From positions 1 to 47,059 of the forward strand of contig JASLLL010000020.1 of the NCBI GenBank assembly GCA_030747075.1: DNA of 47,059 nucleotides, in the 5' to 3' direction. This DNA comes from Gemmatimonadota bacterium. GTDB taxonomy: Bacteria > ARS69. Below, piece after piece: positions 1 to 47,059 of the stretch; the first letter of the stretch is position 1, and each line of letters opens with the position of its first letter. The position numbers and the translations under genes are program-made. The notes beneath the pieces are model-generated. The model worked only from the letters and a program-made list of their open reading frames with translations. It did not search any database and was not told the DNA's origin.

Positions 1-3
1 TCT

Positions 4-2625
4 TTGTCCACACGCCGCAGACTCGGAGGAACCGTGGACCCCGCCGTCGATCGACACGCGCCCCTGTCCGTCCGCCTGATTGCCCGGGAAACCGCCGGAT
101 TCGCGAGGATCGCCGAACCGGTCACCATCGGGGTCCCCCTTCCCCGGGGGCGGGTGCGGGAGGCAGGCCACCTCCGGTTGCGGTCCACGGAGGGAGACGC
201 CATCCCGCTCCAGGTGAAGGCGCAGGACCATTGGAGCGACGGGAGCATCCGGTGGGTGCTTCTCGATTTCGCGGCGGGTGCGCCGTCGCGGGGGGAAGCG
301 GAGTTCTTCCTTACGGTGGACGACGGTCCGCCCGCGCCCGACAGCCCGGAGATCAAAGCGAACAAGACGGGCGACGGCCTCTTTGTGGACACGGGCGCCG
401 CCGCATTTCTCATGGCAAGAGGACCGTTTGACCCCTTCCGGTCCGTACGGGCCGACGGCGTCGAGATGCTGGACCCCGCGGGGACCGGCTGGGTCTGCGT
501 CGACCGGGCCGGGCACTCGTGGAATCCGGTGGCGACCCGGGTCGCCCTGGAGACGGCGGGACCTCTCCGCACGACGGTTCGTGTGGACGGGGAGTTCTGG
601 GGCCCCGGCGACCCGCTTCTCCACTTTACCGCCCGAATCACGCTCCACGCCGGTCGCGCCGCCGCCAAACTGGAGATCGCCGTCACCAATCCACGCCGTG
701 CGGCCCACCCGGGCGGTCACTGGGAACTGGGAGACCCGGGGTCCGTGTTCCTTCGCGAACTCTCCCTTTGCATCGCCTCCCGAAAGGCGGGCCGCGCTTC
801 CTGGTCGGCGGACTGCGGCGCTCCCCTTTCGGAAGTGCCGGGTGGAAGTGTCGGCATCCTGCAGGACGGAAGTGGAGGCAAGAACCGGCGAAGCCGTGTG
901 CACCAGGACCACGAAGGCCGAATCCCCGTCGGACTGGAAGGGTATCGGGTGCGCATGGGGTCCGAAGCGCGCGAAGGGCTGCGCGCATCTCCCCGACTGG
1001 CTGTGCATGACGGAAGCGCGGGCGTCTCGGCATCGATGCGATACTTCTGGCAGGAGTTCCCAAAGGACATGCGGGCCGAGGCCGACGGCACGCTTCGCAT
1101 CGGTCTCTTCCCGGAACGACCGGGTGCCTTCCACGAGATCCAGGGCGGAGAGCGAAAGCGCCACGAAGTCCGGCTGTTCTTCGGCGAGGAAGCGCTGGCC
1201 CCCGCGAATGACGCGGCACGCGCGCCGCTCTTCGTCCATGCGGACCCGAAGTGGTATGCCTCCACGGAGGCCATCCCCTACCTCACAACGCGTGCCGAAG
1301 ACACGGATGCGGATTGTCTGCGTCTGGTAGATCAGGCCATCGAAGGAGACTCATCGTTTGAAGCCAAGCGCGAAGCGGCGGACGAGTTCGGCTGGCGTCA
1401 CTTTGGAGAGATCCCGGCTGATCACGAAGCCCACTTCCACAAGGGCGATGAGACCTTCGTCTCCCACTACAACAATCAGTACGATGCGGTGGACGGCGCG
1501 TTCCTTCGATTCGCCGGAAGCGGAGACATACGCTGGTTCCGGATCATGGAAGAACTGGCACGCCATGTGATGGACATCGACCTCTACCACACGGATCGTG
1601 ATCGCTCCGCTTACAACCACGGGCTCTTCTGGCATACCGTCCACTATGTCGATGCCGGGAAGAGCACGCACCGATCGTACCCGAGCGTGGGGTCAGCGGG
1701 CGGCGGACCGGACAACGAACACAACTACACGACCGGCCTCCTGCACTACCACCTGCTCACGGGGGACGAACTCGCCCGCGAGGCGGTGCTGGGAAGTGCG
1801 CAGTGGGTGGTGGATGCCGACGACGGGGCAAAGACCATGCTGCGGGTTCTGGATCGTGGGGACACCGGGCTGGCGACGAAGACGCGCGATTTCGGCTACC
1901 ACGGCCCGGGACGGGGGGCGGGGAACTCGATCAATGCGCTTGTTGACGGGTGGCGCCTCGGCGGGGATCCGGATCTCCTCGCCCGCTGTGAAACGCTGAT
2001 CCGCCGTTCCATCCACCCCGAGGACAACATGGAGGCGCGAGACCTCCTCAACGCCGAGAACCGCTGGTCCTACACCGTCTACCTGCAGGCACTGGGCAAG
2101 TACCTGGATGCGAAGGCGGAGACCGGACAGCTCGACAGCGCCTACACCTACGCGCGCGAGAGCCTCCTCGCGTACGCACGCTGGATGGCGGCGCACGAAC
2201 ACCCCATCCTGGACAAACCCGGGCAGCTGGAGTACCCGAACGAAACCTGGCCCGCCCAGGACATCCGCAAGTCCGATGTATTCTGCTATGCGGCACTCCA
2301 TGCGAACGATGCGGAGCGTGAGTCGTTTGTCGAACGGGCGCGTTTCTTCTTCCGAAGCGCGGTGGAGTCGGTGGACTCCTTCCCGACCCGCGGGTATGCA
2401 CGCCCCGTGATTCTCCTGATGAAGAACGGCCTCATGCACCCGTGGTGGAGGCTGCACCCGGATGTGCACCGACCGCAGGGCCTGACGACCGGTCCTTTCG
2501 GCGAGCCGGAACAGTTCGTTCCCCAGAAGACGCGTGCGCTTCGCAAGCTCCGCTGGATCGCAGCGGCCGGGGCGGTTCTTCTGCTGGCGGGGGGCGGCGC
2601 GACGCTCCTGCGGGTTCTGTCCTGA
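4..2625 (+). CDS. PcRGLX/YetA-like RIFT-barrel protein with C-terminal membrane anchor
   Basis: This 873-residue protein has an N-terminal region (about residues 20-110) that reads like the RIFT-barrel domain of the exo-rhamnogalacturonan lyase-like PcRGLX/YetA family, including a DGSIRWVLLDF stretch. A long central beta-sandwich region and an alpha-helical C-terminal region follow, rich in His, Trp and Tyr (about 480-800), as in that family's toroid domain. Residues 848-870 form one hydrophobic helix after a basic stretch, so the protein is probably held in the membrane by its tail. There is no N-terminal signal peptide in the visible part. The first in-frame start is TTG at 4, but the frame is open to the window edge, so the true start may lie outside. 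Polysaccharide binding or cleavage is inferred from the family only. Confidence 0.6.
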   Translation: MSTRRRLGGTVDPAVDRHAPLSVRLIARETAGFARIAEPVTIGVPLPRGRVREAGHLRLRSTEGDAIPLQVKAQDHWSDGSIRWVLLDFAAGAPSRGEAEFFLTVDDGPPAPDSPEIKANKTGDGLFVDTGAAAFLMARGPFDPFRSVRADGVEMLDPAGTGWVCVDRAGHSWNPVATRVALETAGPLRTTVRVDGEFWGPGDPLLHFTARITLHAGRAAAKLEIAVTNPRRAAHPGGHWELGDPGSVFLRELSLCIASRKAGRASWSADCGAPLSEVPGGSVGILQDGSGGKNRRSRVHQDHEGRIPVGLEGYRVRMGSEAREGLRASPRLAVHDGSAGVSASMRYFWQEFPKDMRAEADGTLRIGLFPERPGAFHEIQGGERKRHEVRLFFGEEALAPANDAARAPLFVHADPKWYASTEAIPYLTTRAEDTDADCLRLVDQAIEGDSSFEAKREAADEFGWRHFGEIPADHEAHFHKGDETFVSHYNNQYDAVDGAFLRFAGSGDIRWFRIMEELARHVMDIDLYHTDRDRSAYNHGLFWHTVHYVDAGKSTHRSYPSVGSAGGGPDNEHNYTTGLLHYHLLTGDELAREAVLGSAQWVVDADDGAKTMLRVLDRGDTGLATKTRDFGYHGPGRGAGNSINALVDGWRLGGDPDLLARCETLIRRSIHPEDNMEARDLLNAENRWSYTVYLQALGKYLDAKAETGQLDSAYTYARESLLAYARWMAAHEHPILDKPGQLEYPNETWPAQDIRKSDVFCYAALHANDAERESFVERARFFFRSAVESVDSFPTRGYARPVILLMKNGLMHPWWRLHPDVHRPQGLTTGPFGEPEQFVPQKTRALRKLRWIAAAGAVLLLAGGGATLLRVLS

Positions 2626-2643
2626 CGAAAGTGCGCGTCGCGC

Positions 2644-3942
2644 TCAGTCTTCAGCGGGGGGGATCGCGTCGAAGGCCTCCGGTGTGGTTCCGGCGGTCAG
2701 CACGGCGTCGCCGGTTGCATCCCGGAGCCGCCGCTCCCGAAACAGGACCAACGCCACGCCCCACGCCACGAACGGCACGAACAGCAGGAACCCGAAGCGA
2801 GTCGCCACGGAACTCGGGGGCACTCCGGAATCCAGAAACCCTCCCGCGATCCAGCTCATTCCCGAGAACACCAGCGTCATGACGCCGAACTCCAACGCGG
2901 AAACGCGGCCCAGATAGTGTCGGTCCACATCGCGCTGAAGGAGGGTACCCACCATGACCCAGTTCATCCCGCTTCCCACGGCCGCCACGAAGAGGCAAGC
3001 CGCGGCCCCCGCGAATGTCGTGACGCGACCGAGCGCGAGATAGGCCAACCCGGCCAGCGGGTACGCGCAGAGGATCATGCGGCGAAGCGTGCGACTTGAT
3101 TCGCCAAAGACCCGGAACATCCCGATGGAGCCGATCAGCGCTCCCAACCCCCGGCTGCTGTAGAGGATTCCCACCCAGAGCGGCCCCGATGTCGCGGGAA
3201 AGAACCCCGACCCCAATACCGGGATGAGAATGAGCGTCCCGCCGCCGAGAGCCATCATCGGCTTCAGGCAGGCCAGCGCCATCTGGTAGGGGTGCCTGCG
3301 CAGATGACGAAGCCCGTCGACGAATGTCACGCTGGCGCCGCGACGGGCGGCGGGTGCCGGAAGCGCCGGGAGCGTGACCAGAAGTCCCGCGGAAAGCAGA
3401 AAGGTCGCCGAGTCCAGAACAAGCGCCACATCCACCCCTGCCGCTGCCGTAACCCATCCTCCCGCGGCGGCGCCAATCGCCAGCATGACCGACCATGTCC
3501 CGCCCGACAGCGCATTCGCCGTAGCCAGGTCCTTCTCCCCGACAATCTGCGGAATGGCGGCCTGCCGCGCGGGGAAGAAAACACCGGTCATGGTCACCAT
3601 GGCCACGATGCAAGCGTAGAGCGCGGGGAGGCTCTCCGCCCGGTGGGCGAGGATCAGCCCGAGCGCCAGCACCATGCGTGCCAGATCCGACGCAATCAGC
3701 AGAGTTCGCCGATCGAACCGATCCACGAGCGGCCCGGCCACCGGCATTACGAGGAACACGGGGAGCATCTTCGCGACCATCACTACGGCCAGCGCGCGCC
3801 CGCTGCCCGCGAGTTCGAACACAATGGTGTACAGCGCGATCGTGTTGAACCAGTCGCCCAGAAAGCTGACAATTTCCGCAGCCCAGAGAAACCGGAAGTT
3901 CCGGTTCCGCGCCAGGAGTGCCCCGTATCCGGTTCGCCCCAC
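2644..3942 (-). CDS. MFS transporter, MFS_3/EntS-like exporter
   Basis: The 432-residue protein is almost wholly hydrophobic, with about twelve membrane helices, and has the usual MFS loop between helices 2 and 3 (GPLVDRFDRRTLL near residue 70). The N-terminal pattern RNFRFLWAAEIVSFLGDWFN is typical of the MFS_3 group, which includes enterobactin-type and drug exporters. The start is GTG at 3942. It lies 24 bases after the stop of the M3 peptidase gene on the same strand, so the two are likely co-transcribed. The substrate cannot be read from the sequence. It converges on the preceding gene with only 18 bases between stops. Confidence 0.85.
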   Translation of the reverse strand: MGRTGYGALLARNRNFRFLWAAEIVSFLGDWFNTIALYTIVFELAGSGRALAVVMVAKMLPVFLVMPVAGPLVDRFDRRTLLIASDLARMVLALGLILAHRAESLPALYACIVAMVTMTGVFFPARQAAIPQIVGEKDLATANALSGGTWSVMLAIGAAAGGWVTAAAGVDVALVLDSATFLLSAGLLVTLPALPAPAARRGASVTFVDGLRHLRRHPYQMALACLKPMMALGGGTLILIPVLGSGFFPATSGPLWVGILYSSRGLGALIGSIGMFRVFGESSRTLRRMILCAYPLAGLAYLALGRVTTFAGAAACLFVAAVGSGMNWVMVGTLLQRDVDRHYLGRVSALEFGVMTLVFSGMSWIAGGFLDSGVPPSSVATRFGFLLFVPFVAWGVALVLFRERRLRDATGDAVLTAGTTPEAFDAIPPAED

Positions 3943-3966
3943 CCGACCCCGCCTTTCCGCCCGGGG

Positions 3967-5841
3967 TCACCCGGTGATGGAGGCTCCGTCCCGTGGCCAG
4001 TTCTTGAAGATCCAGTCGCGGAAGCGCGCGGCGGCCTCCTGAACGGAGCCGCCCTCTTCCACGATCGTCTCCTTCCCGTGGATCACGCGCAGGCGCAGAC
4101 CCAGGTCCACCTCTTCCGCGGGGGCGTCCGGGGCCGCCACGCGGTCCATCCTCTCGCGCTGGATGCGCACGGCTTCGTCCGTGGAGAGGGAGGCGTGCGC
4201 CACCAGCGCATCCGCGGAGAACCGACCCCCGGTGAGTTCCTCCACCAGTTCCAGAAACCCGCGGCTGTTGCCGGGCGCCCAGTAGACGCGAGCCAGTTCT
4301 TCGCCCACGGCGGGGTTGTCCACGATGTGCCCGTACCGCTGAAGGAAGTAGTCGCGCGTCTGGTACACCGCCATCTGAGCCAGCACATAGCCATGGTAGT
4401 AGCACGACGCCTCCGCCGAGAGGAGATGCGGCACAGCCAGCGTCGGGCGTGGGCAACCGCCCGGCAGGCCGACCAGCCGACGCTCCACATCCCGAAGCAT
4501 CGAGAGCACATTCTCCGGCGTGAGGTCTTCCTCCGCCATTTCGTAGAGTTCCTTCTCCGCATAACACACCACCAGCATGTTGCGAATGTTCTGCGCAAGG
4601 AACGGGTGCGTAATGCGTACGCCCTTCTCCACCAGATCCGCCGACATTGGCCGCCCCGACTCATCCAGCGCATACCGAACCTGCCAGTCCGCGTCTTCCA
4701 GAATGCTGTCGAGAAACATGGACTGCGTCTCCGCAAACGCGACCGAAGTCGGCGCGTACTCCTGCGAGAAACAGGGAGCCCCCATCAGGATGTTGGAGAA
4801 GTGCGCCGCGTGGCCACCTTCGTGGAAGAGCGTCTGCAACGCGCGGAAACCACTGCCCGGTTTGTCGGGCAGCGCGTTCGCCGTGAAGTTGATCTCCGCG
4901 GGCTGCCAGTCTTCCCCACGGAAGAAGGCCGGAGACGGCCCGTGCATGAACCCGTTCTCGTACTTTCCCTTGCGATCCACAAGGTCCAGCGTGATCCGCG
5001 CATCCCGATACCGAATGCCGAGTGCCGCAAAACTCCGCGCCCATCGGTCGATGGAATCCTCGAAGCGGAAGTACGCGTCCCGCTCCGTCTGAATCGATCC
5101 CCAGGTATGGTAGGGGAAGTTCCACGGCTCCAGCGCGTCCTCACCCTCGCGGGAGGCCAGCGCCTTCCGCTCATGAGCCGCCTTCTCCCGGGTGCGCTCC
5201 TCCAGATCGTCCAGGTAGCCGAAGAGCGTTTTCTTGTCGAAGCCCTCTGCCCAGAGAACCTTGTAGTCGTAGTAGTCCTCAAACCCCAGCATCCGTGCGA
5301 AACGGTTCCGGTCACGAACGACCCGGCAGTAATCCTGATCCAGCACGAAGGTCTCGATGGAGCGCAGCCCCTCGAAGCACGCCTTGCGGAACGCGGCGTC
5401 CTTTCCGGACCGCAGTCCGTTGGCCAGCGCCACGGACGACGCAGGCACAAACTCCCCGCTCCGGGGATCGGTGTAGCCCAGCTTCATTTCTCCGCGAGCG
5501 CGCTGAAGAGCGTTCTCGAACTCCACGGACTCCTTTCGGAGGACCCGCGCGTCCGGGTTCTCCACCTGATTCCGGGAGAACATGAGAATCCAGCCGTCGA
5601 GGATCGTCTCCTGATCCACCGAAAGGCCCTCCGCCTCTCTGCGGCGACGAAGCTCCGCCAGCGTGTCCGCATCCGACAGGAACTCCTGGAGCTGAACATC
5701 CGCTTTCGACAGTGTGTCGTGGCGATCGGCCAGACCCATCCGCGTCTCCCAGAAGGCCCCTTCCTTGGCGCGGTGGAACTTCAGGTACTGATCGGTAAGG
5801 TCGTTGAGGAACGCTGCGTGGCAAGTCCGGGTCTCCTGCAT
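3967..5841 (-). CDS. M3 family zinc oligopeptidase
   Basis: A 624-residue zinc metallopeptidase of the M3 (thimet/oligoendopeptidase F) family, which cuts short peptides, usually in the cytoplasm. The catalytic motif HEGGH is at residues 340-344. The third zinc ligand is probably E371 in the downstream AFAETQ segment, a spacing typical of M3. A C-terminal HGYVLAQMAVYQ segment supplies the His/Tyr region seen in this family. No signal peptide is visible. The ATG at 5841 is the first plausible start. The gene leads an apparent two-gene operon with the MFS exporter. A perfect inverted repeat lies about 35 bases upstream of the start. Confidence 0.9.
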   Translation of the reverse strand: MQETRTCHAAFLNDLTDQYLKFHRAKEGAFWETRMGLADRHDTLSKADVQLQEFLSDADTLAELRRRREAEGLSVDQETILDGWILMFSRNQVENPDARVLRKESVEFENALQRARGEMKLGYTDPRSGEFVPASSVALANGLRSGKDAAFRKACFEGLRSIETFVLDQDYCRVVRDRNRFARMLGFEDYYDYKVLWAEGFDKKTLFGYLDDLEERTREKAAHERKALASREGEDALEPWNFPYHTWGSIQTERDAYFRFEDSIDRWARSFAALGIRYRDARITLDLVDRKGKYENGFMHGPSPAFFRGEDWQPAEINFTANALPDKPGSGFRALQTLFHEGGHAAHFSNILMGAPCFSQEYAPTSVAFAETQSMFLDSILEDADWQVRYALDESGRPMSADLVEKGVRITHPFLAQNIRNMLVVCYAEKELYEMAEEDLTPENVLSMLRDVERRLVGLPGGCPRPTLAVPHLLSAEASCYYHGYVLAQMAVYQTRDYFLQRYGHIVDNPAVGEELARVYWAPGNSRGFLELVEELTGGRFSADALVAHASLSTDEAVRIQRERMDRVAAPDAPAEEVDLGLRLRVIHGKETIVEEGGSVQEAAARFRDWIFKNWPRDGASITG

Positions 5842-5874
5842 GGTTCACCCTTCGGGGAAAGCGGATTCCAAGGC

Positions 5875-6043: not shown

Positions 6044-6091
6044 GGATCCGTCGTGGTAGCCCCAAACATTTTGAAAAGGAGTCCTCTCGAC

Positions 6092-7891
6092 ATGAACTTC
6101 AGGATTCAACCCGTCCTTGCGATGATCGCGCTGGCTCTCGTCGCCGCCGCTCCCGTCACCGCCGCTCCGGTGGATGGCGCGGCCGCCATGGAGCTCCTGG
6201 ATCAGGATCGAAACGCCGGACGCATCTCCGCCGAGACCTGGCTCCTCGAGAGCTTCCGGTATGTGTTCGCGCCGGAGGCCGTCTCCCCCCGCTACCTTCC
6301 CGCCAACCGCACACTCATTCGATGCATGACTCCCCGTATCGCCGAGTTCCACCGTCTTCGGGATTCCCTGCAACCAGCGGCGGTCGCGGAGATGGATGGT
6401 TACCTGACGCCATCGGGCGCACAGCCTCGCGCCATCTACATGAGCCCGAGCGGGATCTTCGAGTTCGCCTACCAGACGACCGGAGCGAATGCGGTCGACC
6501 CTTCCGATGTGGACCCGGCCAACGGAATCCCCGACCTCGTGGAGAGGTCTGCGGAGTATGCGGACTACACCTGGGTCACCGAAGTCGACACGCTGGCCTT
6601 CAAAGCCCCCACGCTCACCGCCGGCGTGTATGAGATGTCCTACGAGAGCATGGGCGCATACGGGTACACCACGCCCACCGGCGCGGGAAAGACGCGCATC
6701 GTTCTGCACAACACATTCACCGGTTTCTTCCCGCCGAACACAGACCCGGACGGACCCCAGCTGGGACGCGCCAAGGTCACCATCGCGCACGAGTTCAAGC
6801 ACGCCTCGCAGTACACGAACAGCAGTTGGTCGGAAGGCGGCTGGGTGGAACTGGACGCCACATGGATGGAAGACATCGTCTACGATGACACAAACGACCT
6901 CTACAACTACTTCAACGCGCTGAACGGCGGGAGCCAGCTCTCCAACCCGGAGCAGAGCCTCGACGAGGGCGGATCGGGCAGCTACGAGGATTGCCTCTGG
7001 CAGCTGTACATGTCCGAGAAGCACGGCGTGCAGATCATCACCGACTTCTGGGATCTTCGCGCGGCCAACAGCGGCTGGACGATGCGCAAGAGCTATAGCG
7101 AGATCCTGACCACCTACGGGTCCAGCTGGAACGAGGCCTATCCCGAGTTCATGGAGTGGTGCTGGTTCACGGGTTCCCGCGCCGAACTGCCGTATGGCTT
7201 CGGGGAATCCCCGGACTACCTCCGAATGCGAACGCGCACGGGCAATGTTTCAACCTATCCGGCCAATGTGTCGGACAATGTCGCTCACCTCGCCACGCAC
7301 CCGCGACGCTACAACCCCGGTTCAGCAACCGACCACCCGCGCATCCTCTTCAACGGGGACGACGCGCACACGAACTTCACCGTGTCGGTCATCGCGGAAA
7401 AGCCGGACGGATCGTTCACGATCGTCCAGCCCGCGGTCGACGCAAACCAGGACTTTGACTACACGGTCCCCACTCCGTTCCAGTCGCTTCTGTATGTCGC
7501 CGTGCTCGTGACGAACACGAAGCGCACGGGGTCCGAAGCGTCCTACTCGTACACCGTGGAGGATGCCACGGGATCGACCGGGATCGGTGAACTCGTGACC
7601 GCGGACGCGGGCCTTCGACTCCACCCGGCGGCTCCCAACCCCACCTCCGGCGTGACGACGCTGTCGTTCTCGCTCCCCGCGGATGCTTCGCACGCGGAGA
7701 TGGGCGTGTTCGATGTCCACGGTCGTCTGGTGCGCGCGCTCCACCACGGGCCCCTTTCCGCCGGCCACGGCGAGGCGCGCTGGGACGGCACCGACCACTC
7801 CGGCCGCCGCACTCCCGCGGGGGTGTACTGGATTCGCCTGCACACGGATGACGGCTCCACGGCAGCCCGGAGAGTGACCCTGGTGCGTTGA
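6092..7891 (+). CDS. Secreted MXAN_6640-type metalloprotease with C-terminal sorting domain
   Basis: A 599-residue protein that I assign to the MXAN_6640 family of putative metalloproteases. The ATG at 6092 is chosen over the longer frame (6053) because AAGGAG lies 10 bases upstream and a clear signal peptide follows (residues 1-24, ending AAPVTA). The zinc motif HEFKH is at residues 233-237, followed by a WVELDATWMED segment that could give the third ligand. The last 90 residues (from about 505) hold an APNPTSG motif and a FlgD/T9SS-type Ig fold ending in GVYWIRL, a known cargo-sorting tail in Bacteroidota-like diderms. Secretion by a Por-like system is inference; no such genes lie in this window. 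It is a single-gene unit closed by a strong hairpin. Confidence 0.8.
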   Translation: MNFRIQPVLAMIALALVAAAPVTAAPVDGAAAMELLDQDRNAGRISAETWLLESFRYVFAPEAVSPRYLPANRTLIRCMTPRIAEFHRLRDSLQPAAVAEMDGYLTPSGAQPRAIYMSPSGIFEFAYQTTGANAVDPSDVDPANGIPDLVERSAEYADYTWVTEVDTLAFKAPTLTAGVYEMSYESMGAYGYTTPTGAGKTRIVLHNTFTGFFPPNTDPDGPQLGRAKVTIAHEFKHASQYTNSSWSEGGWVELDATWMEDIVYDDTNDLYNYFNALNGGSQLSNPEQSLDEGGSGSYEDCLWQLYMSEKHGVQIITDFWDLRAANSGWTMRKSYSEILTTYGSSWNEAYPEFMEWCWFTGSRAELPYGFGESPDYLRMRTRTGNVSTYPANVSDNVAHLATHPRRYNPGSATDHPRILFNGDDAHTNFTVSVIAEKPDGSFTIVQPAVDANQDFDYTVPTPFQSLLYVAVLVTNTKRTGSEASYSYTVEDATGSTGIGELVTADAGLRLHPAAPNPTSGVTTLSFSLPADASHAEMGVFDVHGRLVRALHHGPLSAGHGEARWDGTDHSGRRTPAGVYWIRLHTDDGSTAARRVTLVR

Positions 7892-12210: not shown

Positions 12211-14083
12211 GACCCGCTTCGTCCTCGGCGCGGCCATCCTTGCGGCCGCCCTCTCGCTCTCTCTTCCCGCAACTTCCGCGCACGCCCGGACGCAGACGCG
12301 CCTCCTGGATGAAGAATCCGAGGCGGACGCGCTGGCCGGTCTCGACCACCTCTACCACGGACGCATGCAACACGCGGCCCGCCGATTTGAACGCATCCGG
12401 GAGCGCCATCCGCAAAGCCCCGCCGCGGACTTTCTCCACGGAGGCATCGAGTGGCATCGCGTGGCGACGGGACTGGAAGGCACCGGCAGCGGAAGCAGCG
12501 CGGAGAAACAGTTCTTCGCGAGAATGGACGCCGCGATCGAACTCGGAGAGGCCGCCGCCGACCGGGATCCCGACGATGTCGCCGCGCGCTTTTTCCTGGG
12601 CGGCGCCTACGGCTACAAGGCGCGCTACCTGGCGCTGCGCGAGGACTGGTGGTCCGCGTATCGCACCGGACGGCGCGGCGTCAAGCATCTGGAGTGGGTT
12701 GCCGAACACGCGCCGGACCTCGGTGACGCGAAGCTCGGCCTCGGCATCTATCACTACTACGCCGATGTCCTGCCGAGCGTCCTCAAGTTCTTCAGCGGAT
12801 TCCTCGGGTTGCACGGGGATCGCGAAAAGGGAATGGCCGAACTGAAGGAGGCCGCCATCCACGGCACACTCGTGTCGGTGGAAGCGCGGTTCTTCCTGGC
12901 GGAGCTTCAGACTTCCTTCGAAGACGAGCACTGGACCGCACTGGGCTACTCCCGCGATCTCCGGGACACTTATCCGGAAAACGAACTCTTCCGCTGGCTG
13001 AATGGCCGCATCCTCGACGAGCTGCACCTCTCCGAACTCGCCCTCCCCGAGTGGCTCTGGCTTCGGGACAAGGCGAACCGGCGGTCGCTTCGCGGCTTCC
13101 TGGACTACCGGCTTGCCCGGACGAAGCTCTACGGCGGCGACTTCGCGGGCGCGGCCGCAGAGCTCGGGGCGCTCCTCGACGGGCGCGGCGCCGGAAGCCG
13201 CCGAATCAACGCATGGGGCTACCTCCGCCTCGGACAGGCGCTGGACTTCCTCGGGAGGCACGACGACGCGCTCCGCCGCTGGCGACAGGCCCGCGACGCC
13301 GACGCCTCCGATACGGTGTCCGACCGCGCACAGGTCCGACTGGACGCCGGGAGAGACCACGCCGCGGCGGAAGCGTTGGAGGAACTGGCGGAAGTGGCAC
13401 GCATCGTCCTCCACACCGGTGAGCACAGCCCCGACTCCCTCGACTCCATCGAAGCGCGCGCGCGGGCGACCACGCAGGATCTCACGCGGGAACGCCGAAC
13501 CCTGCTGTTCGCGATCGTCATGAATCTGGCGAAGGCGCGGATGGCGGCCGGGGACGAGGAAGGTGCTCTGGTGGCACTCGACCGTGCGGAGGCATCGAGC
13601 GTTCGCCCGTCGCGGGAAGTCCGGGCGCTCCTGCAGGAGACACGCGCCCGGGCCCTCTTCCGAATGGGGCGGCTCGAAGAGGCCGCGCACGCGCTGGAGG
13701 CCGCCCGCCGTGACGCCCCCGATGACGCACGAGCGCGGATCGACGCGGAGCAGGGGATCGTCCGGCGCGCCATCGCACGGAAGCCAGGCGCACATCCGAA
13801 GACCGGCCTTCGCATTACGGCGCGCGATCGCGGAGAGTTCCTGATGGAAGTCGAGACGCCGCTCGGCCGCGTCCCCATGACGCGGACTCGCGGAACCTGG
13901 ACGGCCCACATTCCGGCCACAGACGGTGGGGCGCGGTACCGCTTCGTCGTCGACGGGAACCAGACGCGGGTCGATCCGTGGGCGCCGCGGGTGCGACTGG
14001 TGGAGGGCGAGGCGTGGAGCGAAACTCCCGCGTCAGGCCAGGCAGAAGAAGTCCCGGCCCTCGGCGTATCCCCACCGCGCTAG
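12173..14083 (+). CDS. Secreted TPR protein with C-terminal E-set/glycogen-binding-like domain
   Basis: A 636-residue protein whose start overlaps the E1 gene by 38 bases (ATG at 12173; a TTG at 12197 is the alternative). A basic n-region and hydrophobic core (about 10-38) look like a signal peptide ending SAHA. Most of the chain is helical and Ala/Arg/Glu-rich, with tetratricopeptide-like pairs (about 45-535). The final 75 residues switch to beta structure with GRVPM, TWTAHIP and YRFVVDGNQTRVDPWAP, the pattern of the E-set/CBM48-like domain. The function is unknown; a periplasmic scaffold that binds glycan is one guess. Its last 51 bases overlap the converging glycosyltransferase gene. Confidence 0.65.
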   Translation: MSSKGPGRLRPTETRFVLGAAILAAALSLSLPATSAHARTQTRLLDEESEADALAGLDHLYHGRMQHAARRFERIRERHPQSPAADFLHGGIEWHRVATGLEGTGSGSSAEKQFFARMDAAIELGEAAADRDPDDVAARFFLGGAYGYKARYLALREDWWSAYRTGRRGVKHLEWVAEHAPDLGDAKLGLGIYHYYADVLPSVLKFFSGFLGLHGDREKGMAELKEAAIHGTLVSVEARFFLAELQTSFEDEHWTALGYSRDLRDTYPENELFRWLNGRILDELHLSELALPEWLWLRDKANRRSLRGFLDYRLARTKLYGGDFAGAAAELGALLDGRGAGSRRINAWGYLRLGQALDFLGRHDDALRRWRQARDADASDTVSDRAQVRLDAGRDHAAAEALEELAEVARIVLHTGEHSPDSLDSIEARARATTQDLTRERRTLLFAIVMNLAKARMAAGDEEGALVALDRAEASSVRPSREVRALLQETRARALFRMGRLEEAAHALEAARRDAPDDARARIDAEQGIVRRAIARKPGAHPKTGLRITARDRGEFLMEVETPLGRVPMTRTRGTWTAHIPATDGGARYRFVVDGNQTRVDPWAPRVRLVEGEAWSETPASGQAEEVPALGVSPPR

Positions 14084-32601: not shown

Positions 32602-34782
32602 TCACTCCCCGGCCAGCGAGACGGTCAACGGTGAGACTCCCGCGCTCCATACGCCCTTCGCTTCGTTCTTCGTCCCGGCGAAGACGAGGTAGCTGTACTT
32701 GGAATAGTGCGGGATCTTCCGGGCGATGGCGGCGACCTCGTCCGCGCTCCCGGGAAGGAACAGGGCCACAGCACCCCCGTCTTTCCCGCGCCAGGACGCC
32801 ACGAGCGAACGGCCCGGGGGAAGCCCTGAACCGCCTCCGAGGCCCGCCGACTCCGGGCCGCCCCCCTCGGAGATCCCGCTCAGAATGTCCCGCGCGGCGT
32901 CTCCTGTGCCGAAGAAGAAGAGGGCGCCTCCCCGGTCCGGTTCCACCGTTCCCGTTCCTTCCTCCACCCACGAGATGGTGGAGTCGGCCGCCCACTCCCC
33001 GGCGACCGCTACCAGCGCTTCCCGAATGTCGGGCCGGACATCCTTCCCGATCACGATCCTCGTGGAGTCCGCGCCCAGGACGCCGCTCAGCGTGGGAGCA
33101 ATCTCCTCCCCGTGGAGAATCCGGAAAATGTCGAACTCGGGATCCACCGCCAGCACTTCGGCACTCCCGTGCACCGCAACCTCAAACGCGGTCCGCGTCC
33201 CCGTCATCGGGATGAGTGCGCGGGCCACCTCACCTCCGGCCGCATCCACGCGGACGGGGACGAGCGTCTCCAGGCAGGGCTCCTCCTGCACGAGTGTGGC
33301 GGAGACAACGGTGGAATCTCCCCGCGCCTGCACGGCCACGCCCTCCACGCTCAGGCGAATGGCTCCGGGTCGCGAGATCCACTGATCGAACCACCCCGCG
33401 AGATCCTCTCCGGATACGGCTTCAAAAGAGAGGCGCAGATCATCCCACGACGCTTCCTGAAAGAGGTGATCGCGATACACGGCACGCAGCCCCGCAAGGA
33501 AGACATCCTCCCCGAGGCGTGTGCGGAGCATGTGGAACACCATCATCGTCTTCCCGTAGCCGACGGCCTGCGTCGCCGCGCTGTCCCGTTGGCGGAACTC
33601 GGAGAGCGGGAAGTCCCTCCCGCCACCTGACGCAAAATCCCGATAGCCGAGCAGTTTGTCACGACGGTAGTCGCGTCCCGCCGAGCCGCCGGTGACCTCC
33701 TTGTACAGGTAGTCCGCGAAGTAGGTCGTGAGACCCTCGCACCAGTTCCCGCCCCGCACATCCACGAACACCCCGTTCCCCCACCAGTTGTGGAGGATCT
33801 CGTGCCCGTAGCTCGTGTCCAGAATGAAGGGGAGCCGGATGACACGGTCTCCCAGGAATGTGAAGCTCGGCATTCCATAGCCGGTCTGCCAGTAGTTCTC
33901 CACCAGCGCGAACTTGGAGAAGGGGTAGTCGCCGAACATCTCTCCGTAGAGATCAAGGTACGCACCGGTGCCGTCCAGATACCGGTCGGTGATGTCTTCT
34001 CCGGTATTCCCGTAGCAGAAGGACATGACCCGGATCCCGCGATGCATCCGCTCCCGGACCTCATACGGTCCCGCGATGAGATAGATCTCCTCCATCGGAT
34101 GCGGGCACGACCACTGCATGCGGTAGCCGTCAGCCGTCGGCCCGTACTCGATCAGATCCCCCTGGGATACGGTCCGCCAGTCGGCCGGGCCGGTCACGGA
34201 GACCTCAAAGGTGAACAACCCCTCTCCCGACCAGGGCACCCAGAAAGTCGACCCCGCCAGAAAGGCCCCCTGGTCCACAATCCGGCCTGAGGTTTTCTTG
34301 AAGCTTCGTCCATACGCCCGTTCCGGCGCGACGAGGCTGTCCGCAATGACCCCCTCGTACTCCACCTCCAGAACGACGGGCTCCTCCCATCCGGAGGGCG
34401 GGGGCGCAACCTCCACCTCGCGGGCCACCTCGTACCCGGACAGCTCCGAGTACGGCGGACGCCGCCAGAAGTGGCGCGGATTCCACCCGTTCGTCGAATC
34501 CCACTCCAATTCCTCTCCCGCGTGGCGAACGGCGAGGATCTCCAGATCCCGGTGAAGCAGAAAGCGCCACGGGGCCTCCCCGGAGGGGACGGAGGCAAGA
34601 TGCGCCTCATCCCGCACGTGAATCCAGTGGGTGGGAACATCGAGGGTGGCACGCACCACATGGCGCTCCACGGGCGCGGCCGGGGCAGCGGAGGACGGCC
34701 GACTGCCGGCAATCAGCAGCACCACAGCCGTCAGAAGGAGAGGCTTCGCTCTCGGCGGAAGGACCACAGTTCTCGCAATCAT
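32602..34782 (-). CDS. Secreted M1 family metallopeptidase
   Basis: A 726-residue exported aminopeptidase-like enzyme. A signal peptide (about 1-28, ending SSAA) follows the ATG at 34782. The zinc motif HEILH is at 327-331 and the third ligand is E349 (WCEGLT), 17 residues later rather than the classical 18. YGKTMMVFHML gives the usual catalytic Tyr region. The GAMEN substrate motif reads YGMPSF, so exopeptidase specificity may be changed. The C-terminal 200 residues hold a beta-rich and an alpha/beta part. It leads the M1-M28-GNAT operon. Confidence 0.88.
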   Translation of the reverse strand: MIARTVVLPPRAKPLLLTAVVLLIAGSRPSSAAPAAPVERHVVRATLDVPTHWIHVRDEAHLASVPSGEAPWRFLLHRDLEILAVRHAGEELEWDSTNGWNPRHFWRRPPYSELSGYEVAREVEVAPPPSGWEEPVVLEVEYEGVIADSLVAPERAYGRSFKKTSGRIVDQGAFLAGSTFWVPWSGEGLFTFEVSVTGPADWRTVSQGDLIEYGPTADGYRMQWSCPHPMEEIYLIAGPYEVRERMHRGIRVMSFCYGNTGEDITDRYLDGTGAYLDLYGEMFGDYPFSKFALVENYWQTGYGMPSFTFLGDRVIRLPFILDTSYGHEILHNWWGNGVFVDVRGGNWCEGLTTYFADYLYKEVTGGSAGRDYRRDKLLGYRDFASGGGRDFPLSEFRQRDSAATQAVGYGKTMMVFHMLRTRLGEDVFLAGLRAVYRDHLFQEASWDDLRLSFEAVSGEDLAGWFDQWISRPGAIRLSVEGVAVQARGDSTVVSATLVQEEPCLETLVPVRVDAAGGEVARALIPMTGTRTAFEVAVHGSAEVLAVDPEFDIFRILHGEEIAPTLSGVLGADSTRIVIGKDVRPDIREALVAVAGEWAADSTISWVEEGTGTVEPDRGGALFFFGTGDAARDILSGISEGGGPESAGLGGGSGLPPGRSLVASWRGKDGGAVALFLPGSADEVAAIARKIPHYSKYSYLVFAGTKNEAKGVWSAGVSPLTVSLAGE

Positions 34783-35109
34783 GTGCCAATCATGCCCGAT
34801 TTCCAGCTGAAATCCACCAAAAACCGACCTGAAGCCACGCAGGATCGGACCGGATCCAGCCGACCCTCTCCTCTCCAAGAGCTGCTGTGAGTTAGTAATG
34901 AAAACTCGTGGATTCGCTGAAGATTCCTGTTATGCTGCGATGGCTGTGAGCCGATCACAGTACCTGTGCATTTCACCGGGGGCCTGTCGACCCGAGGTCG
35001 GGACGATGCTGGTCGGGCTTCGGGCTTCGGGCGTTCAAGCGCCCTCCCCCCCGGGACCGCCGGTGGAAACTCGGCACAGGAACTGACATTTTTCTTTGGA
35101 GGATTTCCG
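34783..35109. other. 327-base intergenic region with leader elements
   Basis: This gap separates the M1 peptidase and the divergent surface protein. It holds a TATGCT box (34931-34936) that could be a -10 element without a good -35, a perfect inverted repeat (34944-34960), a tandem heptamer CGGGCTT (35014-35034), and a small hairpin GGGCG/CGCCC (35029-35044). No ORF with a ribosome site is seen. The plus-strand leader would be about 165 bases if TATGCT is used. Confidence 0.4.
34944..34960. promoter_or_regulatory. CRP-like inverted repeat CTGTGA-N5-TCACAG
   Basis: Six-base perfect arms with a five-base spacer give TGTGA-N5-TCACA, one base shorter in the spacer than the CRP consensus. It lies just downstream of the TATGCT box, where a bound protein would repress. 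It could instead act as an RNA hairpin. Confidence 0.35.
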
Positions 35110-36171
35110 ATGCGGACCTTCCTGATCGTTTTCTGCATTGCCCTGCTTGCTGTCCCGGCGTTCGCCGAGAAGCCTGTCGACAAGGCGCGCAGCGCCCCCG
35201 ACGGCTATATCTCTTTCAGCAATGTCCGTGAGGGCGAGTACATGAGTGAAGGCTTTGAAGGCGCGTTTCCGCCCGCGGGCTGGGCGCTGACGGCCAGCGC
35301 ACCGAGCCCCTATACCTGGTACCAGGGAGCGGGCCCGTACTCCGGCAGCTCCGACGCTCATGTCGGCTGGACTGCGTCGTACACGCAGGATGAGCACATG
35401 GATGTCTCGGTGGATCTCACCGGGGCCGGCGCGACCGACCTCGTCCTCAGCAGCTGGCACAACGGGAGCGCCTACTGGTCCGGCAACGCCAACACCACCA
35501 TCAACATCTCCTCCGACGGTGTGAACTACACCGAGGTCTGGAGCATGGCGGTGGACTACCCGGCCAGCTGGACGTGGACGCAGGCCGTGATCGATGTCTC
35601 CGCTTATGCGGGCGGCATGCTCCATGTCCGCTACAGCTATGTCGGAACCGACGGTGCCGATACCCATGTGGACGATGTCCAGGTCGGCTACCTGGCTCCT
35701 CCTCCTCCGCCGCCGGAGAACGACACCTGTGCCGGTGCCGAGGCCAATGGCTACGCCATCACCCCGACCTCGTTCCCGCTGACCGGAGACACGTCGGCGT
35801 ATGCCACGGATTACCCGCTGAGCTACTCCTCCTGCACCGGGTACTCGTCCAGTGGACCGGACGCCGTCTACTTCGTGGACATGACGGACGGTTCCACTAT
35901 CAGCGTCACCATGACCTGCGGCTGGGATGACTCGATCCGCCTCATCACCGACTGCGCGGACCCGCACAACAGTTGCGTGGCCGGCGCGGACGATTACCCC
36001 GACGGCTCGAGCTTCTCGTACACGCATTCCGGCGCGACGATGCGGTACTACCTGATCGTCTCCGGGTACGGCTCCAGCAACTACGGCCCCTTCCAGGTGG
36101 ACGGCACCTTTGACGGCGCGGTCGCCATCGAGGGTTCCAACTGGGGCACGGTCAAGGCGCAGTACCGGTAG
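35110..36171 (+). CDS. Secreted surface protein with choice-of-anchor-J-like and PPC-like domains
   Basis: A 353-residue exported protein. The ATG at 35110 has GGAGGA upstream and a signal peptide (1-19, ending AFA) follows; this is preferred to the longer frame. Residues 45-200 look like a cleaved-adhesin/choice-of-anchor J beta-sandwich (EGFEGAFPPAGWALT, SSDAHVGW, HVDDVQVGY). A run of six prolines near 205 joins a second beta domain (ENDTCAGAEA..., SSGPDAVYFVDM, MRYYLIVSGYG) similar to bacterial pre-peptidase C-terminal domains. There is no FlgD-type tail. The long leader, strong ribosome site and terminator suggest high expression. It holds two of the three ACGT sites in the window. Confidence 0.65.
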   Translation: MRTFLIVFCIALLAVPAFAEKPVDKARSAPDGYISFSNVREGEYMSEGFEGAFPPAGWALTASAPSPYTWYQGAGPYSGSSDAHVGWTASYTQDEHMDVSVDLTGAGATDLVLSSWHNGSAYWSGNANTTINISSDGVNYTEVWSMAVDYPASWTWTQAVIDVSAYAGGMLHVRYSYVGTDGADTHVDDVQVGYLAPPPPPPENDTCAGAEANGYAITPTSFPLTGDTSAYATDYPLSYSSCTGYSSSGPDAVYFVDMTDGSTISVTMTCGWDDSIRLITDCADPHNSCVAGADDYPDGSSFSYTHSGATMRYYLIVSGYGSSNYGPFQVDGTFDGAVAIEGSNWGTVKAQYR

Positions 36172-41173: not shown

Positions 41174-42928
41174 GTGTTTTCCAAGAGAATCGGCTTTGAA
41201 ACCGGGCTCGTGGTGGGCGCGGTCCTCCTTCTCGGGATCGCCGTGTTCCTCAATCGCACGGTGTCGAATCTGGCGCTCGGGCGTTTCGACCTGACCGAAA
41301 ACCAGATCTACACCGTCTCCGAGGGCGCGAAGAACATCCTCGGTCGTCTGGAAGTGCCGGTGCAGGTGAAGTACTTTGTCACGCCCGCGGAAGAGATGCC
41401 GGCCGGGCTCACCACGCTTCAGCAGGATGTCCGCGACAAACTCCAGGAACTGGCGATCACCTCGGGCGGAAATCTGGAGTTCCAGCTGGTGAACCCGAAG
41501 GAAACTCCCGAACTGGAAGAGGACCTCGCGGCGAAGGGAATCCGTCCCTTCCAGGTGCAAAGCGTGGATCGGGACGCGCTGGCCCTGAAGCTCGTCTACA
41601 GCGCGCTCTCCATCGGCTACAAGGACAAAGCGGAGGAGATCCTCCCGCAAGTTCTTCCCGAGACGCTCGCCAATCTGGAGTACGAGATCCTCACGGCAAT
41701 CGTCAGGACGACTCGCGACATGGATCCCGTGATCGCCGTCTACTCCACCCGGGAGCGGCCGGACCCGCAACTCATGCAGATGTACATGCAAATGGGGCAG
41801 GCCCCTCCGGAACCCCCGGACAACTTCACCGCCGCGCGGGAAGTCCTGACCGGAAACGGATACGATGTCCGCCCGGTGGACCTCACCGAGGCCAGTCCCA
41901 TCCCCGAGGAGGCCGCGACGCTCCTCCTGCTCGGCGTGCAGGAACTCGGAGAGCGCCAGCGGTATGAGATCGCGCAGTTCCTTCGCCACGGCGGACGCGT
42001 GATCCTCTCTGCTCAGGCTCTCCTGTACGATTACGCGCCCGGGAGCCGCGGGGGATTCAGCATCTCCGCGCGAGCGCAGGCGTCCTCCGCAAACGACCTC
42101 CTTTCGGAATACGGCGTCCGCGTGGATGATCGCATTCTGATGGACGCGCAGATGGCCACGCTCGCCATTCCGCGAACAACCAATCTCGGCGGGCTCCGGT
42201 TTCAGGTGACGGAACCGGTGCAGGCTCCCATGCAGATTCGCGTGCTGGGCGATGGCTTGAGCGACGACCTGCCGCTCACCGCCGGTGTCCCCGAACTCCT
42301 GTACCTGTGGGGCACGCGGGTGACCCTGGACGAAGAGGCCCAGAACGCCATGGAGCTCTCCTCCACGACCGTTCTCTCCGGAAGCGCCGAGTCGTGGCTG
42401 CTGAATCGGAGCGCGGGGCTGATCGAACCGGCCGATGTAAACCCCACCGGACATGAGCCCGTCCCCTCCCCGCCGCTGGCCGTACTGGTGGAAGGGACCT
42501 TCCCCGACCCCTGGGCGGAAAAGCCGGTGCCGGAGTGGCCAGAGGGCGCCGCAGCGGAAGACGAAGCCCCGGAGGAGATGGAACCGGCCGGAGCGGAACT
42601 TCCACCCGCCCCCGGGAAGCTCCTGGTGACGGGGTGCGCCAAGATGTTCGAGAACATGCTTCTTGAGCAGTCAGCCCACGCGCTCTTCCTGCTCAACTCC
42701 GTGGACGCTCTGACGCTCGGCGAAGACCTGATCAGCATTCGCGCCAAGCGTTTTGATCGACGCACTTTCGGGGAAGTCTCCGACGGGAAGAAGCTCGCAT
42801 TCCGTATGATCAATGTGGCGCTGATCCCCATACTTGCCGTGGCCTTCGCACTCACGCGCAGAACCATGAGGCGTCGCCAGTCGGACGAGTACGCCGCACG
42901 CTATGCGGCCTCTCACGGAGGATCCTGA
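41174..42928 (+). CDS. GldG-like ABC-associated membrane protein
   Basis: A 584-residue protein with one helix at each end (about 13-30 and 555-572) and a large extracytoplasmic part. It opens RFDLTENQIYTVSEGAKNIL, a hallmark of the GldG/ABC_transp_aux family, and has DPVIAVYS and LLLLGVQELGERQRYEIAQFLRHGGRVIL. An acidic Pro/Glu-rich insert lies near 455-490. The start is GTG at 41174 with AGGAGG upstream. It lies ten bases after the permease gene. Confidence 0.85.
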   Translation: MFSKRIGFETGLVVGAVLLLGIAVFLNRTVSNLALGRFDLTENQIYTVSEGAKNILGRLEVPVQVKYFVTPAEEMPAGLTTLQQDVRDKLQELAITSGGNLEFQLVNPKETPELEEDLAAKGIRPFQVQSVDRDALALKLVYSALSIGYKDKAEEILPQVLPETLANLEYEILTAIVRTTRDMDPVIAVYSTRERPDPQLMQMYMQMGQAPPEPPDNFTAAREVLTGNGYDVRPVDLTEASPIPEEAATLLLLGVQELGERQRYEIAQFLRHGGRVILSAQALLYDYAPGSRGGFSISARAQASSANDLLSEYGVRVDDRILMDAQMATLAIPRTTNLGGLRFQVTEPVQAPMQIRVLGDGLSDDLPLTAGVPELLYLWGTRVTLDEEAQNAMELSSTTVLSGSAESWLLNRSAGLIEPADVNPTGHEPVPSPPLAVLVEGTFPDPWAEKPVPEWPEGAAAEDEAPEEMEPAGAELPPAPGKLLVTGCAKMFENMLLEQSAHALFLLNSVDALTLGEDLISIRAKRFDRRTFGEVSDGKKLAFRMINVALIPILAVAFALTRRTMRRRQSDEYAARYAASHGGS

Positions 42929-42929
42929 A

Positions 42930-43931: not shown

Positions 43932-43956
43932 CGCCGCTCACCGCACGACGGCCGAC

Positions 43957-43983: not shown

Positions 43984-44003
43984 CTCTGCTGACGCTCTCG
44001 TCC

Positions 44004-44033
44004 TTGCCAATCCCACTCCGCTGGGGATAGCAT
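44004..44033 (+). promoter_or_regulatory. Candidate promoter of the sdh operon
   Basis: TTGCCA (5 of 6) and TAGCAT (4 of 6) are spaced by 18 bases and end 69 bases before sdhC. The leader holds a seven-pair hairpin GGGACGG/CCGTCCC (44052-44074). Confidence 0.4.
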
Positions 44034-44102
44034 CCGCGGTCGGGATGGGAAGGGACGGCCCCTCTTCCCGTCCCCCTGCAAACCGGGGCCGGGGGGACCG
44101 AA

Positions 44103-44795
44103 ATGAACCGGTGGTCGAGTACCTGGAGTTCATCCATCGGGGCCAAGACCATCATGGCCCTGACCGGACTGGCACTCCTGCTTTTCGTTCTCATCCACTT
44201 ACTCGGGAATCTTCAGATCTATCTGGGACCCGATGCCATCAACGCCTACGCAAAGAAGCTCGCCAGCCTCGGCGGGATCCTCTGGGTGATGCGCGGCGGT
44301 CTGCTCGCAATCTTCGCGCTGCATGTCGCGTCTGCCATCCGGCTCACGCTCCGAAACCGCGCAGCCAGGCCGGTGCGTTACGACACGCAGCAGGCGCTGG
44401 AAGCGGGGATTGCCTCACGGACGCTGATCTACAGCGGGTTTGTCGTGATGGCGTTTCTCATCTACCACATCCTGCACTTCACGATCGGCACGACAGACCC
44501 GTCCATCATGGTGGACGACGGCCACGGCCACCGCGATGTGTACTCCATGGTCATCCTCGGATTCCAGAACACTCCGGTGGCCATTGCGTACATCGTCGCC
44601 ATGGTTCTTCTCGGCTTTCATCTGCATCACGCCATCGCCAGCCTCGCGCAGACGCTGGGTCTCTCCCACCCCGGCTATCGCACCACGATGGCCCGGGTCG
44701 GTCCCGTGCTCGCCTTCCTGATCGCGGCGGGCAATCTCTCCATTCCCCTCGCGGTGCTGAGCGGCTTCCTCGGCCTTCCCGCAGGAGGGCAGTGA
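44103..44795 (+). CDS. sdhC: Succinate dehydrogenase cytochrome b subunit (type B)
   Basis: A 230-residue membrane protein with five helices, of the single-polypeptide diheme type found with menaquinone. Heme-ligand histidines occur in [28 protein letters not shown] and [12 protein letters not shown]. It anchors the succinate:quinone oxidoreductase. The ATG follows a weak G-rich site. It is followed by sdhA after one base, in the C-A-B order typical of Bacteroidota and deltaproteobacteria. Confidence 0.9.
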
Positions 44796-44796
44796 C

Positions 44797-46710
44797 ATGA
44801 GACTCGATTCGCAAACCCCGTCCGGACCTCTCGCGGAGAAGTGGGACCGCCACCGCTTTGAAATGAAGCTTGTGAATCCCGCGAACAAACGAAAGTACCG
44901 GGTGATCGTCGTGGGAAGCGGACTCGCCGGAGCTTCGGCCGCCGCAACGATGGCGGAACTCGGCTACGGAGTGGACTGCTTCTGCTTCCAGGACAGTCCC
45001 CGCCGCGCGCACAGCATTGCCGCACAGGGCGGAATCAACGCCTCCAAGAACTATCAGAACGACGGCGACAGCGTCTTCCGGCTCTTCTACGACACCGTCA
45101 AGGGCGGCGACTTCCGCTCTCGCGAAGCCAATGTTTACCGGCTTGCGCAGGTCAGCGAACACATCATCGACCAGTGCGTCGCGCAGGGGGTGCCCTTTGC
45201 GCGGGAGTACGGCGGGCATCTCGACAACCGGTCATTCGGAGGCGCACAGGTCTCCCGGACATTCTACGCCAGAGGGCAGACCGGCCAGCAACTACTGCTC
45301 GGGGCCTATTCCGCTCTGTCGCGGCAGATTGGCGCGGGGGCCGTACGGATGCATCCGCGAACCGAAATGCTGGACCTGATCGTGATCGACGGACGCGCGC
45401 GCGGAATCGTCACCCGAAATCTCGTGAGCGGACGCATCGAGTCCCATGTGGCGGACGCAGTCGTCCTCGGGACCGGCGGGTACGGGAATGTGTTCTACCT
45501 CTCCACCAACGCGAAGGGCTGCAATGTGACTGCCGCCTGGCGGGCGCATCGTCGCGGCGCGGGCTTCGCAAATCCCTGCTACACGCAAATCCACCCGACC
45601 TGCATTCCTGTCTCCGGAGATTATCAGTCAAAGCTGACGCTCATGTCGGAGTCGCTCCGAAACGACGGCCGCATCTGGGTCCCGGCCTCCGCAGACGATT
45701 CCCGAGCCCCGGGGGACATCCCGGAGGAAGAGCGCGACTACTACCTGGAGCGAAAGTACCCGAGCTTCGGAAACCTCGCCCCGCGCGACATCTCCTCCCG
45801 CAGTGCAAAGGAAGCCTGCGACGATGGGCGTGGCATCGGCTCGACCGGGCTCGGCGTATATCTGGACTTCCGGGACGCCATCGGACGCCTCGGCGAGGAC
45901 ACGATTCGAGCTCGCTACGGCAACCTCTTCCACATGTACCGAAAGATCACCGGTGAGAATCCGTACGAAACGCCCATGCGCATCTACCCTGCGTCCCACT
46001 ACACGATGGGCGGCCTGTGGGTGGACTACAACCTCATGAGCACCATCGACGGGCTGTTCGTCATCGGCGAAGCGAACTTCTCCGACCACGGCGCGAACCG
46101 ACTCGGCGCGAGCGCGCTCATGCAGGGCCTTGCGGACGGCTACTTCGTTCTTCCGTACACCATCGGGAACTACTTCGCCCGAATGGAACGGACGGAGGTC
46201 ACGACGGATCATGCGGAGTGCCGTGGCGCCGTCGAAGAGGCCACCGCCCGCATCGATGCGCTGCTCGGTACCGGCGGGAAGGAAACGCCGGACTCCTTCC
46301 ACCGTCGGCTGGGACAGATCGTCTGGGAGCACTGCGGCATGGCGCGCAACGATGCCGGGCTTGCCAAGGCGCAGGCGGCAATCCCCGCGCTCCGTGAGGA
46401 GTTCCGCGAGAACCTCCTCGTATGCGGAACGGGGAACGAACTCAACATGAACCTGGAGGCGGCGGGCCGCGTCGCGGACTTCCTGGAGTTCGCGGAACTC
46501 ATGGTCACGGACGCCCGCGCACGCACGGAGTCGTGCGGGGGGCACTTCCGCGAGGAAAGCCAGACGGAAGAGGGCGAAGCCGCTCGCGACGACGAGAACT
46601 TCTGCCACGCATCCGTCTGGGAGCATCGCGGTGCCGGAGAGACGCCGGTGCATCACCGGGAACCGCTCGTCTTCGAGCATGTCGAGTTGAGCCAGAGGAG
46701 CTACAAGTAA
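44797..46710 (+). CDS. sdhA: Succinate dehydrogenase/fumarate reductase flavoprotein subunit
   Basis: A 637-residue flavoprotein that oxidises succinate or reduces fumarate. [19 protein letters not shown] (about 36-54) is the FAD dinucleotide site and H72 in [15 protein letters not shown] is the covalent FAD histidine. [12 protein letters not shown] and [14 protein letters not shown] are active-site segments. The protein is of the type-B, Bacteroidota-like form. The stop overlaps the sdhB ATG (TAATG). Direction in vivo cannot be told. Confidence 0.95.
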
Positions 46711-47059
46711 TGAAACTCACTCTCAAGGTCTGGCGCCAGCGGAGCGCGAGCGAGAATGGCTCGTTTGAGAAGTACACCGTCCCGGACGCAAGTTCCCACA
46801 TGTCTTTTCTGGAGATGCTCGATGTGGTCAACGAACAACTGGCCACCTCCGGGGGAGATCCGATTGCGTTCGATCACGACTGCCGCGAAGGAATCTGCGG
46901 GATGTGTTCGCTGGTGATCAACGGCGTGCCGCACGGGCCGGAGCGCGGAACCACCGTCTGCCAGCTCCACATGCGTTCTTTCACCGACGGCGACACCATC
47001 ACGATTGAGCCGTTCCGCGCCCGGGGGTTCCCGGTGCTTCGGGATCTCATCACCGACCG
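46710..47059 (+). CDS. sdhB: Succinate dehydrogenase iron-sulfur subunit, N-terminal part
   Basis: The gene starts at ATG 46710, overlapping the sdhA stop by one base, with AGAGGAG upstream, and runs off the window after 116 codons. It shows the [2Fe-2S] ferredoxin motif CREGICGMC and a later Cys (TTVCQLH) as fourth ligand. The C-terminal domain with the [4Fe-4S] and [3Fe-4S] sites is outside the window. Confidence 0.92.

What the first reader, a model, noticed from the sequence alone, without database searches (positions are those of the whole stretch)
1..47059. Near-total loss of the tetranucleotide ACGT
Reading the whole window by eye I find ACGT only at 34616, 35572 and 35791. At about 65% G+C with independent bases roughly 150 would be expected. 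ACGC, ACGG, ACGA and palindromes such as GATC, GTAC, CATG and CTAG are all present. The avoidance is written into codon choice: Asp, His, Asn and Tyr end in T before Val (for example GAC-GAT-GTC near 12572), while C-ending codons are used elsewhere; Thr is ACA before T-starting codons (near 6710, 6859, 39975, 45258). Both changes are the transitions expected from 5-methylcytosine deamination in ACGT on either strand, but restriction avoidance fits too. This implies a present or past ACGT-specific modification or restriction system in the lineage.
Basis: partly seen in the sequence, partly recalled or inferred. Interest (0 to 1): 0.8.

Follow-up and report, generated by a model that had tools for sequence, protein, structure and literature searches.

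The report
Genome purged of the sequence ACGT
This bacterium has lost about 98% of the four-letter sequence ACGT (and most AATT) from its whole chromosome while its relatives keep it; the pattern of replacements says selection, most likely to escape a DNA-cutting defence enzyme, rather than chemical decay of methylated DNA, yet no DNA-methylating gene of the main families tested is left in the assembly.

Summary
ACGT occurs at 34616, 35572 and 35791 only; about 131-145 are expected. It holds genome-wide: outside six islands, 100 sites in 2.16 Mb (o/e about 0.016 in codon-pair terms, 0.02 between genes). Same-family relatives have normal ACGT. AATT is also depleted (o/e 0.06-0.18).

All three codon frames are equally depleted, including xxA|CGT, where deamination would be missense. 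Thr before T is mostly ACC (65%), not ACA (15%). Where relatives have ACG|T, this genome has ACC|T 21 times and ACA|T once. Intergenic ACAT and ATGT show no excess. This is selection against the site.

Best explanation: restriction avoidance from long residence of an ACGT-specific and probably an AATT-specific type II restriction system. The puzzle: five main DNA-methyltransferase families and DndC give no hit in the 2.67 Mb assembly, so the system was lost very recently or is missing from the draft. Unpurged ACGT survives in the rRNA operon and in apparently recent islands, two of them beside tRNA/tmRNA genes.

Restriction-site avoidance and traces of lost systems are known, and ACGT is known to be scarce in Helicobacter pylori. 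The depth here and the lack of a methyltransferase are notable.

The parts
1..47059 (.). Whole window (contig C20 of the 61-contig assembly): ACGT 3 seen, about 131-145 expected
34616..34619 (.). Residual ACGT (CAC|GTG, His-Val, inside the minus-strand ORF 32605-34878)
35572..35575 (.). Residual ACGT (ACG|TGG, Thr-Trp, ORF 34966-36168)
35791..35794 (.). Residual ACGT (ACG|TCG, Thr-Ser, same ORF)
3871..3874 (.). Residual AATT (GAA|ATT, Glu-Ile), one of two in the window
34508..34511 (.). Residual AATT (GAA|TTG, Glu-Leu), second of two
12571..12579 (+).
   Evidence: letters around 12572

Best explanation
The genome has been purged by selection, site by site, of ACGT and, less completely, of AATT. 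The likely agent is restriction: over a long residence, one or more type II restriction-modification systems that cut unmethylated ACGT (and AATT) made each site a small risk of self-cleavage, so mutations that removed sites were favoured and new sites were rejected. Shown: genome-wide, frame-independent depletion specific to this lineage, with a replacement spectrum of selection. Inferred: that the selecting agent is a restriction enzyme, and that the system was recently lost or sits in DNA missing from this draft genome. If the remaining sites all arose after relaxation, selection stopped no longer ago than about 0.4-0.5% neutral substitutions per site (inference from 1-exp(-4d) = 0.016-0.02); if it is still at work, equilibrium needs only 2Ne*s of about 4 per site (inference).
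For: All three codon frames equally depleted: 18/1662, 57/3035, 10/492. Intergenic 12/584. Relatives o/e 0.96-1.39 and 1.08 in codon-pair terms. Orthologous sites: ACG|T in relatives became ACC|T 21 and ACA|T 1 of 28. AATT o/e 0.075 against 0.52 in relatives. Several palindromic hexamers are mildly avoided here but not in relatives: GCCGGC 0.37 vs 1.07, CTCGAG 0.39 vs 0.89, GGGCCC 0.53 vs 0.97, which also fits restriction exposure. Islands have normal ACGT (0.91) and AATT (1.02) and two abut tRNA/tmRNA genes, as expected of recent arrivals not yet purged. PMC4687349 reports that long-resident orthodox type II systems are the ones whose sites are avoided, and that avoidance without the system can be a trace of a lost one.
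Against: No hit in the whole assembly to PF00145, PF01555, PF02384, PF07669, PF02086 or DndC. The depletion is so complete that a loss must be very recent. No ACGT-specific enzyme was identified, so the agent is inferred from the pattern alone. Foreign-looking islands carrying 7-18 ACGT sites sit in the chromosome, which argues against an active nuclease without protection.
Confidence: 0.75

Rival explanations
1. Mutational decay: ACGT was (or is) methylated to A-5mC-GT and lost by deamination to ATGT/ACAT, as proposed for Helicobacter pylori.
For: In coding DNA NAC|GT became NAT|GT almost throughout and 68 of 69 relatives' xAC|GTx sites are ATGT here; ACA before T is somewhat raised (0.15 vs 0.05-0.10 before other bases). 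H. pylori ACGT losses are skewed to ATGT/ACAT (PMC10423294).
Against: NAT is the only synonymous escape in that frame. Thr ACG|T went to ACC (21) not ACA (1). xxA|CGT, where both products are missense, is as depleted as the others. Intergenic ACAT 465 and ATGT 474 are no commoner than composition-matched AAGT 466 and ACTT 513, although about 570-780 ACGT are missing. AATT cannot be lost this way. No PF00145 gene.
Confidence: 0.05
2. A system that acts on ACGT without a classical DNA methyltransferase: an unknown DNA modification with a matching nuclease, or a nuclease restrained in another way.
For: No DNA methyltransferase of five tested families and no DndC in an assembly scored 100% complete, yet near-complete depletion up to the present.
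Against: The assembly is a 61-contig draft; several of the ACGT-rich islands lie at contig ends, so accessory DNA is probably missing. Type II systems are the known cause of such avoidance. The motif scan for divergent methyltransferases covered only 82% of the genome.
Confidence: 0.1
3. Selection at RNA level: a sequence-specific mRNA interferase or other RNA-level process that recognises ACGU.
For: The palindrome makes both strands equal, so strand symmetry does not exclude it; the rRNA operon keeps 13 ACGT.
Against: Intergenic DNA is as depleted as genes (0.02); AATT and several palindromic hexamers are also avoided, which points to double-stranded DNA.
Confidence: 0.03
4. Composition, codon bias or assembly artefact.
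For: None found.
Against: o/e 0.02 against Markov and codon-pair expectation, with neighbours such as ACGC, ACGA, TCGT and TCGA near normal; relatives of similar G+C normal.
Confidence: 0.01

Closest known systems
Restriction-site avoidance and traces of lost type II R-M systems in prokaryotic genomes (PMC4687349)
   Same: Underrepresented short palindromes, host-wide, including in genomes that no longer encode the system.
   Different: The published cut-off for avoidance is an o/e of 0.78; here it is about 0.02 for ACGT. No cognate or candidate methyltransferase was found.
ACGT scarcity and M.Hpy99XI in Helicobacter pylori (PMC10423294)
   Same: Same motif, similar abundance in hpEastAsia (about 53 per Mb there, 46 per Mb here); a known type II specificity.
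   Different: There losses are skewed to ATGT/ACAT, attributed to m5C deamination, and a C5 methyltransferase exists; here the spectrum is not that of deamination and no C5 methyltransferase is found.
ACGT-cutting type II enzymes (MaeII, TaiI, HpyCH4IV) and AATT-cutting ones (Tsp509I, MluCI); from own knowledge
   Same: They show that natural enzymes with just these two 4-base specificities exist.
   Different: No homologue was identified here.

Membership tests
Restriction-site avoidance (orthodox type II) | Palindromic site strongly underrepresented against Markov or codon expectation | tested here: met
Restriction-site avoidance (orthodox type II) | Depletion independent of codon frame and present in noncoding DNA | tested here: met
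Restriction-site avoidance (orthodox type II) | Lineage-specific, absent from relatives without the system | tested here: inconclusive
   Lineage-specific: yes. Whether the relatives lack the system is not known; they were tested for PF00145 only
Restriction-site avoidance (orthodox type II) | Cognate methyltransferase and endonuclease encoded in the genome | tested here: not met
   five methyltransferase families absent; endonucleases have no common profile and could not be tested. Absence is allowed for a lost system
5-methylcytosine deamination at ACGT | ACGT replaced chiefly by ACAT/ATGT wherever another choice is possible | tested here: not met
5-methylcytosine deamination at ACGT | C5 methyltransferase present | tested here: not met
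   (control rang in 10 of 14 genomes)
DNA phosphorothioation (Dnd) | dndC present | tested here: not met
   (no control genome passed the curated cut-off, so the test is weak)
MT-A70 type DNA methyltransferases | PF05063 match | tested here: inconclusive
   no match, but no control rang either
Restriction-modification acting at ACGT in the living organism | Modified base at ACGT | not testable with these tools
   needs long-read or bisulfite data

The most novel reading that the evidence does not exclude
A defence or self-recognition system that targets ACGT (and AATT) but protects self DNA without any classical DNA methyltransferase, for instance by an undescribed modification, and that is still at work in this lineage.
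Probability: 0.08. Interest if true: 0.85.

Novelty: new member of a known kind. Interest (0 to 1): 0.42.

Why it matters
It is an unusually complete record of what restriction can do to a host genome: about 98% of sites removed in every frame and between genes, with relatives as controls. It separates selection from methylcytosine decay cleanly, which the best-studied ACGT case (H. pylori) does not. If a closed genome of this lineage really lacks any methyltransferase, it becomes either a very fresh trace of a lost system or a lead to an unknown kind of DNA self-marking.

Tried and rejected
Deamination as the cause: rejected. One degenerate recognition site AMKT covering both ACGT and AATT: rejected, AAGT and ACTT are normal. 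A longer site behind AATT or ACGT: rejected, all flanks are depleted. TTAA as a third site: not counted, TTA/TAA-containing words are low here and in relatives. A CRISPR array whose spacers could be tested for ACGT: none found by a simple scan of 82% of the genome. The ACGT-rich island at C10:1-3700 as the seat of the system: its first ORF (P0001) has a D...ExK pattern like PD-(D/E)XK nucleases, read by eye, but no Pfam, PADLOC, PDB, plasmid or viral match and no relative in 386 genomes, and it is foreign-looking DNA, so it hardly explains an old purge. A literature search for ACGT together with restriction avoidance and palindrome gave nothing.

Full report
Observation. Dinucleotide-preserving shuffles give 144 +/- 12. 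The window is contig C20 of a 2.67 Mb, 61-contig assembly scored 100% complete.

Extent. I fetched 2.18 Mb of that genome (82%). It holds 175 ACGT, and nearly half sit in six islands: C10:1-3700, C19:16192-18498, C29:31251-32590, C35:204-2714, C41:886-3839 and C46:674-3922. Outside them there are 100 in 2.163 Mb. The exact word GACGTC, counted over the whole assembly, occurs 31 times against 1443-4299 in the four other genomes of the family, while its reversed control CTGCAG is 478 against 1006-1447. Samples of the relatives give ACGT o/e of 0.96-1.39. So the loss is genome-wide and specific to this lineage within the genomes held.

AATT is lost as well: 129 of 1727 expected in codon-pair terms, against 52 of 99 in relatives, and 31 of 203 between genes. 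Both words are normal in the islands (ACGT 75/83, AATT 26/25). TTAA and CTAG are also rare, but TTA/TAA words and CTAG are rare in the relatives too, so I do not count them. Several palindromic hexamers are mildly avoided here and not in relatives.

Selection or mutation. NAC->NAT does not discriminate, because it is the only synonymous way out. Four tests do. (1) Frames: ACG|T 18/1662, xAC|GTx 57/3035, xxA|CGT 10/492; in the last frame deamination would change Arg to Cys or His, yet depletion is the same. (2) Thr before T: ACC 0.65, ACT 0.19, ACA 0.15, ACG 0.005; in relatives ACG 0.52, ACC 0.37, ACA 0.05. (3) Aligned orthologues with the same residues: relatives' ACG|T is ACC|T 21 times and ACA|T once here, of 28. 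(4) Between genes, ACAT 465 and ATGT 474 equal the composition-matched AAGT 466 and ACTT 513, though several hundred ACGT are missing. AATT holds no C. Deamination is therefore not the driver; the site itself is selected against.

Agent. Selection against a 4-base palindrome in every context is the known result of long exposure to an orthodox type II restriction system (PMC4687349), a paper that also reports avoidance as a trace of lost systems. ACGT is a known specificity and is very scarce in H. pylori (53 per Mb in hpEastAsia, PMC10423294; here 46 per Mb), so the depth is not without precedent. Two independent specificities, ACGT and AATT, are the simplest reading, since AAGT and ACTT are normal. 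That the agent is a restriction enzyme is inference.

The missing enzyme. Profiles of C5 (PF00145), N4/N6 (PF01555), N6 (PF02384), Eco57I-type (PF07669) and D12 (PF02086) methyltransferases find nothing in the whole assembly, although each finds members in the control genomes. DndC gave no match (weak control); MT-A70 was inconclusive because no control rang. A motif scan of the fetched 82% found only an RsmD-like protein (by its motifs). Either the system was lost very recently (inference: at most about 0.5% neutral change ago), or it lies in DNA that the draft lacks. The second is plausible: most of the ACGT-rich islands lie at or near contig ends, and two islands sit beside tRNA or tmRNA genes, where mobile DNA commonly inserts. 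The C35 island is the rRNA operon; its 13 ACGT are as expected of constrained RNA.

How unusual. Among 386 genomes across the domain, GACGTC is near zero in several. Most of those that I checked are also poor in GTCGAC and so simply short of CpG or G+C, but at least G224 (0 against 138) and G099 (4 against 113) look like ACGT-specific loss. The phenomenon seems to recur.

Verdict.

Noticed in passing
genome G000; window 3871 and 34508: AATT is also nearly absent (o/e 0.06-0.18), normal in islands and closer to normal in relatives; probably a second avoided restriction specificity.
   Followed up: yes
L125:16192-18883 (C19), L124:9100-12657 (C29): ACGT-rich islands lie next to a tRNA gene (C19) and next to a tRNA cluster with tmRNA (C29): probably recent insertions that have not been purged.
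   Followed up: partly
L015:2-862 and 951-2060 (C10): Foreign-looking, lower-GC (0.57) gene at a contig start with a D...ExK pattern like PD-(D/E)XK nucleases, followed by a 370-aa orphan; no match in the libraries searched, and the first has no relative in 386 genomes.
   Followed up: partly
genome G000: Palindromic hexamers GCCGGC, CTCGAG, GGGCCC and GAGCTC are mildly avoided here (0.37-0.60) but not in relatives.
   Followed up: partly
genomes G224 and G099: Unrelated genomes with GACGTC nearly absent (0 and 4) while GTCGAC is present (138 and 113): likely further cases of ACGT-specific loss.
   Followed up: no
window 6053-7888, 41174-42925: Putative metalloprotease with a FlgD/T9SS-type C-terminal domain, and a GldG-like gliding-associated ABC transporter protein; the phylum has only five genomes held, all of one family.
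   Followed up: no
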